From the IMG/VR virus record IMGVR_UViG_3300033233_000192, positions 1 through 20,306 of that record: DNA of 20,306 nt; one strand, 5' to 3'. A model generated the notes under the pieces. It was given only the letters and a program-made list of their open reading frames with translations. It was not told where the DNA came from and did not search any database. The translations under genes were made by a program, and so were the position numbers. Positions within the stretch are counted from its first letter, which is position 1. Each line of letters begins with the position of its first letter. The stretch is from a virus. Positions 6,288 to 17,322 of this stretch are shown one piece after another.

Positions 6288-6529
6288 GAGCCCAGTCGTC
6301 CTATGAGTTTGTCCTTTAATTCTTCTAGCCGAAGTTCAAGTTCTTTATTTTTCTTTTTTATTTTTTTCGAGTCAATCAACACCCATGCACATAGGATCAG
6401 TATCAGATGCATCGGCCATATTAAAAACAGAACGAAAAACTGCATAATAAAGAAAATAATGGCGTAGAAAAATCTTCCGGCAAACAAAAGTCCCAGAAAT
6501 GGAAACGGAATAGCCAGCAGATAGGTCAT
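6284..6529 (-). CDS. Pmp3/YqaE-like small membrane protein
   Basis: An 81-residue protein with two or three hydrophobic segments (about residues 2-17, 20-34 and 37-51) followed by a charged coiled-coil tail (KKIKKKNKELELRLEELKDK). The start, LLAIPFPFLGLLFAGRFFYAI, then MQFFVLFLIWPMHLILILCAWV, resembles the short Pmp3/YqaE (UPF0057) proteins, usually ~50-60 residues with two spans; the tail is extra. An AAGGA site precedes the ATG, and its neighbours are coupled by ATGA on both sides. A membrane role is clear; the family call is tentative. Confidence 0.6.
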   Translation of the reverse strand: MTYLLAIPFPFLGLLFAGRFFYAIIFFIMQFFVLFLIWPMHLILILCAWVLIDSKKIKKKNKELELRLEELKDKLIGRLGS

Positions 6530-7125
6530 ACGATCAATTCCTTTTCACAGTCCATCCACGCTTGTTGGACGGCCTGGAATTGATGATCACTTCCGCCCCT
6601 GTCTGGATGCGCCGCTGATCGAGCAAGATAATATGCTTTGATCGCAGCATTCAGGTCGTGACCATAATATGCAAGCACCTCGCGCCACGGCTTACCTGTC
6701 GGCGACGGCAACGCAACAAACCCAGTGAAAGCACGATCTAATATCTCACCGCCTCCCCATCGCTTTATTCCGCGCATAGCATCCAGCGTCATGGCGATGG
6801 CATAAATGTTTTCTTCCACCCGCGCATATTTATCCACGGCAATCACTTTGCGATCATTGTCCGGGCTTTTGTGCCACCATACAGACACACCAGTATCTTG
6901 TGGTTGCGGTTGGTTAGAGTAGGGCAGTCCATCTATTCGCAATCTTAAATCGGTTGATATAATAATATTGTAATCATTAATACCCATTTGCCCAAGCTGA
7001 TGCAGCACATCAGCCACGCATGCGGATATTGATTTACTTTTAAAACGGCTGCGATCTCGTGTTTTCGTTCGCGCCCAGCCTTCTGGCCACGTCAGCGGAT
7101 AACTGGATATTGATTTTTCATTCAC
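6526..7125 (-). CDS. J-domain (DnaJ-like) phage protein
   Basis: A 199-residue protein with a C-terminal J-domain-like module: NAAIKAYYLARSAAHPDRGGSD, with the HPD tripeptide at 173-175, then QFQAVQQAWMDCEKEL. The HPD motif stimulates the ATPase of DnaK-type chaperones, so this may recruit host Hsp70. The N-terminal ~120 residues (YPLTWPEGWART, then VSVWWHKSP, then KVIAVDKYARVEENIYAIAMTLDAMRGIKRWG) resemble a conserved region seen in phage and prophage proteins that end in a J domain. No Gly/Phe or zinc-finger DnaJ regions are present. It lies in the leftward early operon and overlaps its neighbours by a few bases on either side. Confidence 0.85.
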   Translation of the reverse strand: MNEKSISSYPLTWPEGWARTKTRDRSRFKSKSISACVADVLHQLGQMGINDYNIIISTDLRLRIDGLPYSNQPQPQDTGVSVWWHKSPDNDRKVIAVDKYARVEENIYAIAMTLDAMRGIKRWGGGEILDRAFTGFVALPSPTGKPWREVLAYYGHDLNAAIKAYYLARSAAHPDRGGSDHQFQAVQQAWMDCEKELIV

Positions 7126-7614: not shown

Positions 7615-7869
7615 TGTAACGCTCAAACTTTTTGGTTCTCTCTGGCGCATTGGCTCGCTCACTTATTGTGGTTCTCTCGCTTTTAATGGCTCGCTCTTGA
7701 GCTATGGTTCTCTCTGGACAGTGGCTCGCTCACTTATTGTGGTTCTCTCGCTTTTAATGGCTCGCTCTTGAGCTATGGTTCTCTCTGGACAGTGGCTCGC
7801 TCAGTGGTACTGGTTCTCTCAGGTGGTATGGCTCGCTCGACCTTCCTGGTTCTCTCGGCATTTATGGCT
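7615..7869. repeat. Array of two alternating 10-bp units with 7-8 bp spacers
   Basis: On the plus strand TGGTTCTCTC (unit A) starts at 7633, 7669, 7705, 7740, 7776, 7811 and 7847; TGGCTCGCTC (unit B) starts at 7651, 7687, 7722, 7758, 7793 and 7829. They alternate strictly. A degenerate B (TGTAACGCTC) stands at 7615 and a half B (TGGCT) at 7865, reaching the stop codon of the neighbouring gene. Spacers are 8 bases, except 7 at 7715 and 7786, and most differ in sequence. Bases 7651-7721 are exactly repeated at 7722-7792. The array fills the gap between the IS110-like protein gene and the HTH gene and should be transcribed with the leftward operon, giving GAGAGAACCA and GAGCGAGCCA in RNA. Confidence 0.95.
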
Positions 7870-8680
7870 AAATTTTGTGTGCATGCCCCAATATTGCAAT
7901 TGGATACGGTAACGGTGGTGGCCCATCAAAGTGACCCTCAAACGCTTTTTCATGGTAGTGTGCTAAAAAAAGCTTAACCGCCCACCGTTTTGCGCGCATA
8001 TGGATATGTCCGTCAGGCAATTTACCTTCCTCGTACCTGGCTTTTTGTGCGTGCGTAGGCCGCGCCTTTAAAACAGCGGCGGCCTGTTCCGCATATTCGC
8101 CATTTTCATTTTTTTGTTTTTCATATTCTTTGCGTTTTAAATACAACTTTCCATAAATATCATTGTCGTTGCCCGACACTTTTACAAATGATTCACCGAT
8201 TTTCCAGCACAATGTTTTCAATGATGCGTTGTGCGGACGTTTTTCACCCTTCCCCCATTTTGATGTCGGGTCAAGTCCCGCAAACCGCCAGATGTGGCCG
8301 ACCGTTGGCGCTTTGGTGATATCAATGTGAGCAAGCAAGCCAGAACAAATAACTGGCCCGATACCAACGATTGATCGCGCCCAGCGGCCCAGCTCGGATG
8401 CATTGCTGTATTTATCTAGCGCACGTTTGACCTGATCTTCTAGCGTCGTCGATTGATCAGACAGCCAGTCCAGCACAGCATGTTGTTCTTTGCTTTCCGA
8501 CATTGATCGTATTTGCCCGTCTGTGCGGATACGTTGTTCCTGCATCATGTAGTAAGCATCCACCAAAAAACGTGCCTCATCCCGCGTCAGCGGGTTATCG
8601 CTGAGTATGGTTTTTAACACATCTTTGTTCAGTTTCTTTATTGGCTCAAACGTGTCACTTGGTTCTAAAATATCGCTCAT
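7868..8680 (-). CDS. IS110/IS116-type transposase C-terminal-domain protein (no DEDD domain)
   Basis: A 270-residue protein. Residues ~100-250 resemble the C-terminal Transposase_20 domain of IS110/IS116/IS902 recombinases: a helix-hairpin-helix-like GIGPVICSGLLAHID (106-120), then HIWRFAGLDP (128-137), a helix KTLCWKIGESFVK, and a closing RAKRWAVKLFLAHYHEKAF (229-247). The N-terminal RuvC-like DEDD catalytic domain of full transposases (usual length 300-400 residues) is absent; instead there is a helical, acidic ~95-residue segment. Terminal inverted repeats of an insertion sequence are not seen, and the gene lies in frame with the phage operon between ssb and the repeat array, with an AAAGGA site. 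It is therefore probably a phage protein that binds DNA or RNA, not an active transposase. Confidence 0.75.
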   Translation of the reverse strand: MSDILEPSDTFEPIKKLNKDVLKTILSDNPLTRDEARFLVDAYYMMQEQRIRTDGQIRSMSESKEQHAVLDWLSDQSTTLEDQVKRALDKYSNASELGRWARSIVGIGPVICSGLLAHIDITKAPTVGHIWRFAGLDPTSKWGKGEKRPHNASLKTLCWKIGESFVKVSGNDNDIYGKLYLKRKEYEKQKNENGEYAEQAAAVLKARPTHAQKARYEEGKLPDGHIHMRAKRWAVKLFLAHYHEKAFEGHFDGPPPLPYPIAILGHAHKI

Positions 8681-13336: not shown

Positions 13337-13459
13337 TCAAACCCCTTTTGTCATGTAGTAAAAGCCGACGCCAATAATCACCAGAAGCGTAAGTCGAAAA
13401 ACATTTACTAACAGACGCATGTAGCGCGACCGACTGGTATTCATGTCGATTATTTTCAT
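13337..13459 (-). CDS. Small one-span membrane protein
   Basis: A 40-residue ORF with an ATG at 13459 that overlaps the stop of the NSG-repeat gene as ATGA. Basic residues (SRSRYMRLL) precede a membrane segment (VNVFRLTLLVIIGVGFYY), giving an inner-membrane one-span protein with its N-terminus probably inside. It ends just before the start of the next gene. A competing frame from 13544 crosses the repeat gene and is much less likely. Confidence 0.55.
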   Translation of the reverse strand: MKIIDMNTSRSRYMRLLVNVFRLTLLVIIGVGFYYMTKGV

Positions 13460-14475
13460 ACTCGTATCCCTGATATTTCAAAAAACACGTCCGCATCAAA
13501 ATTTGGCAGGTTACGCAGCATCTCGATGTCTTCATCTGTGGCACTTTTAAAAGATTCTTGAAAACTTTTCTTGTAATCCGATCCTATGGAAAAATATAAA
13601 AATCTTGGTTTTTTTGCGTTTTCCCAATCCGCTCTGTTACACGGCATATTAAATACACGTATAACATCGCTTTGCACCGTGTTAAATGAACCAGTTTCGT
13701 AGGCGCACGCATTCCATTGTCCTGAATTTCTGTCGCCGGAATTTCTGTCGCCGGAATTGACGTCGCCGGAATTGTTGTCGCCTGAATTTCTGTCGCCGGA
13801 ATTGTAGTCGCCGGAATTGTAGTCGCCGGAATTGTAGTCGCCGGAATTGTAGTCGCCGGAATTGTAGTCGCCGGAATTGTAGTCGCCGGAATTGTTGTCG
13901 CCGGAATTGTAGTCGCCGGAATTGTTGTCGCCGGAATTGTTGTCGCCTGAATTTCTGTTGCCGGAATTGCTGTAGCCGGAATTTCTGCCGCCGGAATTGC
14001 TGCCGCCGGAATTGCTGCCGCCGGAATTGTTGTCGCCGGAATTGCTGCCGCCGGAATTGTTGTTGCCGGAATTGTTTTTGCCGGAATTGTTGTTGCCGGA
14101 ATTGCTGCCGCCGGAATTGTTGTTGCCGGAATTGTTGTTGCCGGAATTGTTTTTGCCGGAATTGTTGCGCTGATCCAGGAGAGCAACAACCTCCTCATCG
14201 GTTAATACGCGTATTATTTTTAGACCGGCAGCGACGCCCTTATGCTCTGTAGGCTGCTCTAAAATTATAGTACCCAATGGCTCAACGACTGCGTAACGGT
14301 TGTCAGTGACGTCTTTCACAGGATAATATTGCAGCGTTAAAACCAAGTCTTTGCAAAAATGGAATCCTTTTTCACACAATATTGGATCGCCTTCGATCCA
14401 ATAAGTCTGACCCTCAACATACTGAAAACCACGACATTTAAGCTCCCGGTCGAATGCTTTGTAGTAATGTGCCAT
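13456..14475 (-). CDS. NSG pentapeptide-repeat protein
   Basis: A 339-residue protein in three parts. Residues 1-100 form an N-terminal domain with a pattern (YYKAFDRELKCRGFQYVEG, then CEKGFHFCKD, then NRYAVVEPLG) seen in some phage and bacterial proteins ahead of repeats. Residues 105-252 carry thirty uninterrupted pentads of the form N-S-G-x-x, with the variable pair shifting from KN/NN/GS to DN and DY (six DY in a row). Residues 253-339 form a C-terminal domain ending FFEISGIRV. Such N-S-G-rich pentads can form a right-handed beta-helix. At DNA level the repeat period is 15 bases (13720-14163). It starts after a GAGGA site, downstream of the 14786 gene. Role unknown; DNA mimicry or surface binding are possibilities. 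Confidence 0.9.
   Translation of the reverse strand: MAHYYKAFDRELKCRGFQYVEGQTYWIEGDPILCEKGFHFCKDLVLTLQYYPVKDVTDNRYAVVEPLGTIILEQPTEHKGVAAGLKIIRVLTDEEVVALLDQRNNSGKNNSGNNNSGNNNSGGSNSGNNNSGKNNSGNNNSGGSNSGDNNSGGSNSGGSNSGGRNSGYSNSGNRNSGDNNSGDNNSGDYNSGDNNSGDYNSGDYNSGDYNSGDYNSGDYNSGDYNSGDRNSGDNNSGDVNSGDRNSGDRNSGQWNACAYETGSFNTVQSDVIRVFNMPCNRADWENAKKPRFLYFSIGSDYKKSFQESFKSATDEDIEMLRNLPNFDADVFFEISGIRV
13720..14163. repeat. 15-bp coding repeat (30 NSG pentads)
   Basis: Thirty copies of a 15-base unit, built around CCGGAATTG on the plus strand, encode the NSG pentads. The DY stretch (around 13800-13880) is nearly identical at DNA level, which suggests recent slippage or recombination. Copy-number changes would keep the reading frame. 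Confidence 0.95.
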
Positions 14476-16540: not shown

Positions 16541-17322
16541 TGTACGGGAAAATATTCGATTCGATTTATGACGGAACCCTCGCTGAAGACTGGAGGGCAC
16601 TGATCACCTTTCAGCAGATGATCGTTTTATGTGATGCCGATGGAATGATTGATATGACCCCGCACGCCATATCTCGCCGAACTGGAATACCTATCGAACA
16701 CATTGAGGCCGGTATAAAAATTTTAGAAAATCCAGACCCATACAGCAGAACCGATGCCGATGAGGGGCGGAGAATCATGCGTATTGATTCACATAGGCCG
16801 TGGGGGTGGCATATCGTAAACCATACTAAATACAAGAACTTGCAGGATTCCGACATGATTAGAGCGCAGACCAGGGAGCGTGTTAGGAGACATAGGGAAG
16901 CGAACAAAAACGATGTAACGGACGGTAACGAATGTAACGGTGATGTAACGGACGGTAACGCAAAGAAACGGCATACAGATACAGATACAGATACAGATAC
17001 AGATACAGATACAGATACAAACACAGAAGAAAAGATCAAGATCAAACCCATACGGGAGAAACCCGAAAAAACAAACCCACAAGAAAACACACATTTGCCG
17101 GATTGGGTTGACATGGCGGCATGGAGTGATTTTGTCACGTACCGGAAAGAACTGAAAAAGCCGCTCAAGAACATGGGCGTTACCCGGTGTCTGTCATTGC
17201 TGGAAAAATATAAACCTCAGCAGCGGGAAATTATCGACCGAAGCATCCAGGCCGGATGGACAGGTTTGTTTGAACCAAAACAAAAACAAAAAGTCGTTGA
17301 TCAATTCGCAGGTTGCATATGA
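16540..17322 (+). CDS. Phage replication initiator (O-like, wHTH)
   Basis: A 260-residue protein. Residues ~1-105 form a winged-helix-type domain (MYGKIFDSIYDGTL, then ITFQQMIVLCDADGMIDMTPHAISRRTGIPIEHIEAGIKILE, then WGWHIVNHTKYKN) of the kind seen in phage replication initiators. A linker with seven Thr-Asp pairs (HTDTDTDT...) follows, then a C-terminal helical part (WSDFVTYRKELKKPL, CLSLLEKY, IDRSIQAGWTGLFE) that may load the helicase. The layout resembles lambda O, which also holds its origin within the gene. It overlaps the primase-helicase gene as ATGA. Confidence 0.85.
   Translation: MYGKIFDSIYDGTLAEDWRALITFQQMIVLCDADGMIDMTPHAISRRTGIPIEHIEAGIKILENPDPYSRTDADEGRRIMRIDSHRPWGWHIVNHTKYKNLQDSDMIRAQTRERVRRHREANKNDVTDGNECNGDVTDGNAKKRHTDTDTDTDTDTDTDTNTEEKIKIKPIREKPEKTNPQENTHLPDWVDMAAWSDFVTYRKELKKPLKNMGVTRCLSLLEKYKPQQREIIDRSIQAGWTGLFEPKQKQKVVDQFAGCI
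16913..17095 (+). other. Candidate replication origin inside the initiator gene
   Basis: Five GTAACG hexamers start at 16915, 16925, 16934, 16945 and 16955, that is 10, 9, 11 and 10 bases apart, close to one helical turn each. The outer pairs form two copies of GATGTAACGGACGGTAACG (16912-16930 and 16942-16960). They are followed by seven ACAGAT hexamers (16975-17016) and a long A-rich stretch to about 17095. This order of iterons, then an easily melted region, inside an initiator gene is like lambda ori. The call is inferred from layout. Confidence 0.55.
16975..17016 (+). repeat. Hexanucleotide repeat ACAGAT x7
   Basis: Seven exact ACAGAT copies code for the Thr-Asp linker of the replication initiator. 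Copy-number changes keep the frame and would change only linker length. Confidence 0.95.

What the first reader, a model, noticed from the sequence alone, without database searches (positions are those of the whole stretch)
7615..7869. Strictly alternating two-word DNA array beside an IS110-like protein gene
Thirteen perfect 10-bp units of two kinds (TGGTTCTCTC and TGGCTCGCTC) alternate without exception, with 7-8 bp spacers of mostly different sequence, plus a degenerate unit at one end and a half unit at the other. The words are conserved and the spacers are not, so the words are probably under selection as binding sites in DNA or in the leftward RNA. The units are too short and too close for CRISPR. 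The array sits between the stop of a gene for a transposase-derived protein and a small HTH gene, either of which could be the partner. A protein-array or protein-RNA system (regulatory, replicative, partition, or RNA-guided by analogy with bridge RNAs of IS110 elements) is a hypothesis only.
Basis: partly seen in the sequence, partly recalled or inferred. Interest (0 to 1): 0.9.

Follow-up and report, generated by a model that had tools for sequence, protein, structure and literature searches.

The report
Phage TIGR-TasA guide-RNA array

Summary
Thirteen perfect 10-bp words of two kinds alternate without exception at window 7633-7856, flanked by two half-words. Read on the minus strand, in the sense of the 270-aa gene just upstream, it is a TIGR array: edge repeat GAGCGAGCCA, loop repeat GAGAGAACCA, two 7-8-nt spacers per unit. 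The half-words are the two truncated edge repeats that bound TIGR arrays, so 7869-7620 divides exactly into seven guides (five of 36 nt, two of 35). The protein is a nuclease-less TasA: its fold matches TasH and TasR well above IS110. An array chain was found in 77 of 81 loci (window plus 80 viral relatives), against two chains in reversed controls, with paired repeat positions that covary as in the published TasR structure. The neighbouring phage genes are not conserved with it. This is a new member of a known kind.

What TasA does, and what natural TIGR spacers target, is open. I found no self-targeting and no general excess of targets in other phage or host DNA. One lead: guide 3, present twice, matches 15/15 nt, in the tandem-spacer orientation inferred from the TasR paper, the D arm of phage-borne tRNA-Arg genes (79 of 123 hits inside tRNA genes; 2 of 114 in the other orientation). 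That is suggestive only.

The parts
7868..8680 (-). tasA: 270-aa Nop-domain Tas protein without a nuclease domain
   Evidence: phmmer to TasR 9mty 1.6e-11 and TasH 21kl 9.4e-11; profile 3.9e-21 and 3e-14; AlphaFold2 pLDDT 87; VIA-align TasH Z 18.5, TasR Z 17.1, IS621 Z 13.0; no HNH or RuvC in Pfam
7620..7869 (-). TIGR array, 250 nt, seven tigRNA units, from 5'-truncated edge AGCCA (7869-7865) to 3'-truncated edge GAGCG (7624-7620)
   Evidence: sequence; TRF; parse; same organisation as PMC12045711
7865..7869 (-). 5'-truncated edge repeat AGCCA, overlapping the tasA stop codon (7870-7868)
   Evidence: sequence
7834..7869 (-). tigRNA 1 (36 nt): spacer A TAAATGCC, spacer B GGAAGGTC
   Evidence: parse
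7798..7833 (-). tigRNA 2 (36 nt): A TACCACCT, B GTACCACT
   Evidence: parse
7763..7797 (-). tigRNA 3 (35 nt): A CTGTCCA, B TAGCTCAA; composite matches the D arm of phage tRNA-Arg genes
   Evidence: parse; target scan and tRNA overlap
7727..7762 (-). tigRNA 4 (36 nt): A TTAAAAGC, B CAATAAGT
   Evidence: parse
7692..7726 (-). tigRNA 5 = copy of tigRNA 3 (71-bp duplication)
   Evidence: parse, TRF
7656..7691 (-). tigRNA 6 = copy of tigRNA 4 (71-bp duplication)
   Evidence: parse, TRF
7620..7655 (-). tigRNA 7 (36 nt): A ATGCGCCA, B AAAAGTTT, ending in the 3'-truncated edge repeat GAGCG (7624-7620)
   Evidence: parse, sequence
7633..7856 (-). seven loop repeats GAGAGAACCA and six full edge repeats GAGCGAGCCA, alternating
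   Evidence: sequence

Best explanation
A phage-borne TIGR-TasA system. The array is transcribed from the same strand as tasA, most likely on the same message. TasA dimers bind it through the edge and loop repeats (box D-like AG pairing with box C-like CCA), and a host RNase cuts in the middle of each edge repeat (GAGCG|AGCCA) to give seven guides of 35-36 nt (five different ones). Each guide holds a TasA dimer on DNA where spacer A pairs with one strand and spacer B with the other, directly adjacent or 1-2 bp apart. Having no nuclease, TasA would bind and sharply bend its target and so block transcription or replication of that DNA rather than cut it. Shown here: protein family and fold, absence of a nuclease domain, array anatomy, conservation of the gene-array pair, and covariation inside the repeats. 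Inferred from the published TasR/TasH/TasA work: processing, DNA binding, orientation of pairing. Speculative: that the targets are competing mobile elements.
For: Protein: sequence match to both solved Tas proteins and to no other family at E below 1e-3 except IS621 at 9.5e-4. Fold search ranks eleven Tas chains at E 1.4e-4 or better, with IS110 chains next at 4e-3 or worse. Array: edge/loop/spacer anatomy, both truncated edge ends and a 36-nt unit exactly as described in PMC12045711. The published TasH phage (Salicola CGphi29), run through the same parser, gives edge AAGCGAGCCA and loop AAGACAACCA, one base and three bases from the window's words. Family: 64 of 73 relatives carry an array within 100 bp of tasA, median 30 bp, and 95 of 98 chains lie on the tasA strand. 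Reverse test: 11 of 16 fetched stretches holding the window's two words in register encode a TasA within the stretch; of the other five, two lie on contigs that carry a TasA in another stretch (contig names). Covariation over 43 array groups: edge positions 4-7 are C-G in 33 and T-A in 10, loop positions 4-7 mostly A-A; edge positions 3-8 are G-C 31, A-T 7, T-A 1, G-T 3, A-C 1. Other window genes are not conserved around tasA in relatives.
Against: No terminator-like site was found on the minus strand after the array, whereas published arrays usually end with one. Two units are 35 rather than 36 nt. No expression or processing data can be had here. Box D is AG/GAG here instead of the UG of TasR (the paper says these motifs can diverge between loci).
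Confidence: 0.93

Rival explanations
1. An IS110-family element: the protein is a degenerate transposase and the array a bridge-RNA-like or end structure.
For: Weak Pfam hit to Transposase_20, PHROG name 'transposase', and a shared Nop-like RNA-binding fold (IS621 Z 13.0).
Against: No DEDD catalytic domain: the model aligns only to IS621 residues 124-314. Tas proteins match far better. The array RNA folds no better than shuffles (z -0.14), unlike a structured bridge RNA. Relatives keep long arrays.
Confidence: 0.02
2. The words are DNA binding sites (operator, partition or replication iterons) for the HTH or another protein.
For: Regular spacing and proximity to a small HTH gene.
Against: Strand-specific placement with tasA in 95 of 98 chains, internal base-pair covariation that makes sense only in RNA, truncated halves at both ends, and the HTH gene not conserved with the array.
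Confidence: 0.03
3. A TIGR-TasA system whose purpose is to regulate the phage's own genes or help its integration, not to act on other elements.
For: Spacers could be chosen by the phage; the paper suggests help to integrases because of the DNA bend (PMC12045711).
Against: No excess of matches of guides to their own locus over mispaired controls (<=1 mismatch: 4 real, 1 control; <=2: 35 against 49). No integrase was recognised among the window proteins scanned. Own loci are up to 20 kb only, so distant own genes are untested.
Confidence: 0.2
4. The system targets tRNA-Arg genes carried by rival phages (guide 3) and other viral genes, blocking their expression.
For: Guide 3 composite TAGCTCAA-N(0-2)-TGGACAG: 79 of 123 viral hits lie in tRNA genes, all in one orientation, mostly tRNA-Arg(TCT). 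Other orientation: 2 of 114. Absent from 185 Gammaproteobacteria with the longer pattern and found in 1 of 150 Pseudomonadota genomes. Exact in Pectobacterium phage My1 and Bordetella phage vB_BaM-IFTN2. Family-wide, near matches to tRNA genes exceed mispaired controls in the tandem orientation only (<=1 mismatch: 13 against 5.1, control max 7; other orientation 4 against 4.3).
Against: Only 15 nt; one of five distinct guides; tRNA sequences are conserved and abundant, so a chance hit looks common. The tRNA set used was largely fetched by guide 3 itself. The other four guides show no clear target. No excess in bulk viral or host DNA.
Confidence: 0.2

Closest known systems
TIGR-TasH of Salicola phage CGphi29 (SpTIGR, PDB 21kl/9w04)
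   Same: Phage-borne; array downstream on the same strand; 8+8-nt spacers; edge AAGCGAGCCA against GAGCGAGCCA here; same Nop fold (Z 17-18).
   Different: TasH has an N-terminal HNH nuclease; the window protein lacks it (its alignment starts at about TasH residue 65).
TIGR-TasA (FpTIGR, Flavonifractor plautii; PMC12045711)
   Same: Nuclease-less Nop protein with a dual-repeat array; 36-nt guides.
   Different: FpTIGR spacers total 18 nt, here 15-16 nt; sequence of FpTasA not available for comparison here.
TIGR-TasR (TaTIGR, PDB 9mty)
   Same: Nop domain, box C CCA, extra base pair in the edge repeat only.
   Different: RuvC nuclease; UG box D; 9-nt spacers; archaeal locus.
IS110/IS621 bridge-RNA recombinases
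   Same: Related RNA-binding domain; two-part guide RNA idea.
   Different: DEDD recombinase with a single structured bridge RNA, no tandem array.

Membership tests
TIGR-Tas | Nop-domain Tas protein | tested here: met
TIGR-Tas | Adjacent array of two alternating 8-12-nt repeats with two short spacers per unit | tested here: met
   10-nt repeats, 7-8-nt spacers; within the published range if SpTIGR (8+8) counts
TIGR-Tas | Array bounded by a 5'-truncated and a 3'-truncated edge repeat | tested here: met
   AGCCA at 7869-7865 and GAGCG at 7624-7620
TIGR-Tas | Box C/D-like pairing in both repeats, extra pair in the edge repeat only | tested here: met
   Covariation over 43 array groups; the parser used there did not score these positions, though edge and loop were told apart by the 4-7 pair
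TIGR-Tas | Array stays with the tas gene in homologues | tested here: met
   77 of 81 loci (window included) with a chain, 64 of 73 within 100 bp
TIGR-Tas | Rho-independent terminator after the array (typical in the paper, not defining) | tested here: not met
   Simple scan finds none on the minus strand after 7620
TIGR-Tas | Transcript processed into about 36-nt guides | not testable with these tools
   Unit length 35-36 nt is consistent
TIGR-Tas | Guide-directed DNA binding with one spacer per strand | not testable with these tools
   Only target predictions were made
TIGR-TasA subtype | No HNH or RuvC nuclease domain | tested here: met
   No such Pfam hit; alignment to TasH begins at about its residue 65 and to TasR at 110; no longer start in frame
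IS110 transposon | DEDD (RuvC-like) catalytic domain | tested here: not met
   Only the RNA-binding part aligns
IS110 transposon | Single structured bridge RNA | tested here: not met
   Array RNA z-score -0.14
CRISPR | One repeat of about 25-36 nt with spacers of similar length | tested here: not met
   Two 10-nt repeats, 7-8-nt spacers

The most novel reading that the evidence does not exclude
Natural TIGR-TasA arrays of phages contain guides against tRNA genes of competing phages: guide 3 (present twice) directs nuclease-less TasA to the D arm of phage-borne tRNA-Arg genes that proteobacterial chromosomes nearly always lack, so that a bound, bent complex silences the rival's tRNA supply without harming the host.
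Probability: 0.15. Interest if true: 0.8.

Novelty: new member of a known kind. Interest (0 to 1): 0.45.

Why it matters
The natural targets of TIGR arrays and the job of the nuclease-less TasA are open questions, stated as such by the discoverers. This locus is a compact, fully delimited example (one 270-aa gene and seven guides in about 1.06 kb), and it and its relatives give about 1,650 distinct guides for statistics. It also offers one concrete, testable target, the phage tRNA-Arg D arm. The repeat covariation across 43 array groups gives independent support, in TasA loci, for the box C/D pairing seen in the TasR structure.

Tried and rejected
(1) Self-targeting: guides against their own loci in two orientations with mispaired controls, no excess. 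(2) Shared targets: spacers recurring between unrelated arrays, 69 against 41 expected, partly because related arrays L033/L035 were labelled with opposite phase. (3) Palindromic targets (spacer A like spacer B), suggested by tigRNA 2: no family-wide excess. (4) Bulk viral DNA, Tas-bearing loci and host DNA as targets: no excess in either orientation. (5) Guides 1, 2, 4 and 7 against all viral contigs: hits form clumps in conserved genes or look random. Guide 4 falls in two unrelated viral gene families that share the codons for LKALI, so I do not claim it. An apparent double hit of guides 3 and 4 in two contigs is one virus sequenced twice, the guide 3 hit being in a tRNA-like stretch. (6) Prophage guides of Acidobacteriaceae KBS 96, Halomonas NO4 and two other genomes against parts of their own genomes: nothing. 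(7) Rfam: no match. (8) A first DP parser had positive drift and was discarded. (9) One bulk search timed out and was rewritten. (10) Plasmids: no Tas relative.

Full report
What was checked. The window holds 13 perfect 10-bp words of two kinds, TGGTTCTCTC (7) and TGGCTCGCTC (6), strictly alternating from 7633 to 7856 with 7-8-bp spacers (TRF rows at period 36 and 71). On the minus strand these read AGCCA and GAGCG, the right and left halves of GAGCGAGCCA.

What it is. Read on the minus strand, the strand of the 270-aa gene at 7868-8680, the array is AGCCA-[A-loop-B-edge]...-GAGCG with edge GAGCGAGCCA, loop GAGAGAACCA and two spacers per unit. Cut in the middle of every edge repeat, 7869-7620 (250 nt) gives seven units: five of 36 nt and two of 35. 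Units 3 and 5 are the same, as are 4 and 6, from a 71-bp duplication. This is the layout that Faure et al. describe for TIGR arrays: alternating 8-12-nt edge and loop repeats, short paired spacers, a truncated edge repeat at each end, and 36-nt processed guides that begin and end in the middle of the edge repeat (PMC12045711). The first half-edge overlaps the stop codon of the protein gene.

The protein. By sequence it matches the two solved Tas proteins, TasR 9mty (1.6e-11) and TasH 21kl (9.4e-11); with a 38-member profile 3.9e-21 and 3e-14, IS621 following at 9.5e-4. The AlphaFold2 model (pLDDT 87, pTM 0.83) matches TasH (Z 18.5, 216 residues, 3.2 A), TasR (Z 17.1, 191 residues, 2.9 A) and, lower, IS621 (Z 13.0) and ISCro4 (Z 12.9) (Foldseek). 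The alignment starts at about TasH residue 65 and TasR residue 110, that is after their N-terminal nuclease domains, and no HNH or RuvC domain is found. It is therefore a TasA.

The pair is conserved. Among 80 viral contigs with a relative (46-63% identity) plus the window, a parser for the repeat chain that ignores the paired positions finds an array in 77 of 81, against 2 chains in the reversed sequences; 95 of 98 chains lie on the tas strand. Nearest arrays lie a median 30 bp from the gene, 59 downstream and 14 upstream. Relatives in bacterial genomes (Acidobacteriota, Halomonas, Propionivibrio, Chloroflexi, Latescibacterota and others) mostly carry arrays too. In the reverse direction, 16 stretches of viral contigs hold the window's two words in register, and 11 encode TasA within the stretch held. 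Other genes of the window are hardly ever found around tasA in these relatives, so gene and array travel as a unit.

RNA signature. Over 43 array groups, edge positions 4 and 7 are C-G (33) or T-A (10), while loop positions 4 and 7 are mostly A-A. Edge positions 3 and 8 are G-C (31), A-T (7), T-A (1), G-T (3) or A-C (1), and loops are G-C (37), T-A (2), A-T (1) and three unpaired. Edge and loop classes were told apart by the 4-7 pair itself, so the contrast between the two classes is partly built in; the switch between C-G and T-A, and the 3-8 covariation, are not. This is the box C/D pair in both repeats plus one extra pair in the edge repeat only, as in the TasR structure. The characterised TasH phage, Salicola CGphi29, gives edge AAGCGAGCCA and loop AAGACAACCA with a parser of the same kind.

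How it probably works (inferred from the published members, not shown here). TasA binds the transcript, a host RNase cuts inside the edge repeats, and each TasA dimer with one guide pairs spacer A with one DNA strand and spacer B with the other. Of the two possible target orders, only A followed by the reverse complement of B fits the 8-nt 3' overhangs and the 'C-5 rule' reported for TasR; this is my derivation from the text, and the paper also contains a sentence with the opposite polarity. Without a nuclease, TasA would block or bend its target.

Targets. Guides show no excess of matches to their own locus, to other Tas-bearing loci, to 3.3 Mb of viral DNA or 0.9 Mb of host DNA. For guide 3 (spacers CTGTCCA and TAGCTCAA, present twice), 79 of 123 hits lie in tRNA genes, all in the same orientation, mostly tRNA-Arg (TCT), at the D arm TAGCTCAA-N-TGGACAG. 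In the reversed order of halves it is 2 of 114. The site was absent from 185 Gammaproteobacteria (with two more bases, AG, in the pattern) and present in 1 of 150 Pseudomonadota genomes, and is exact in the tRNA-Arg of Pectobacterium phage My1 and in Bordetella phage vB_BaM-IFTN2. The nearest named phages by the primase-helicase, lysozyme and SSB genes infect Gammaproteobacteria, so the host may lack the site, but the host is not known. Across the family, near matches (at most one mismatch) to tRNA genes are 13 against 5.1 in mispaired controls in the tandem order, and 4 against 4.3 in the other. This is a lead, not a result: the match is 15 nt, it is one of five guides, tRNA genes are abundant and conserved, and most of the tRNA set was fetched by guide 3 itself.

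Verdict. A clear, well-delimited new member of a family described in 2025. The observation and its suspected importance hold up; the novelty is modest. The open questions it touches (what TasA does, what TIGR spacers target) remain open, with one testable candidate target.

Noticed in passing
13456-14475 (-): 339-aa protein with about 29 tandem 15-bp units (NNSGD-type pentapeptide repeats), 13731-14167.
   Followed up: no
16973-17027 (+): Nine copies of a hexamer (ATACAG) coding for a (DT)n run inside a 260-aa gene next to the primase-helicase; possibly phase-variable or a linker.
   Followed up: no
6526-7125 (-): 199-aa protein with a J-domain-like C-terminus (HPDRGG), relatives annotated as DnaJ-like or molecular chaperone in Synechococcus, Microbacterium and Gordonia phages.
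   Followed up: partly
7798-7833 (-): tigRNA 2 has spacers that are near copies of each other (TACCACCT, GTACCACT), so its target would be an inverted repeat; no such trend in the family.
   Followed up: yes
L096 11580-13543: Array of about 109 repeat units downstream of a Tas homologue on a 4.3-Mb chromosome record of a Latescibacterota MAG.
   Followed up: no
L059 17551-18602 (-) and L062 766-1117: Further arrays 7-9 kb away from tasA; in L062 with a different loop word (GACAACTTCA).
   Followed up: no
L073, L077: TasA relatives whose upstream array uses other words (GAACATCA with CGAGCCA), missed by the parser.
   Followed up: no
L014-L019: Arrays that share spacer pairs, several with identical coordinates relative to tasA, in contigs of different metagenomes, useful for following how arrays change.
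   Followed up: no
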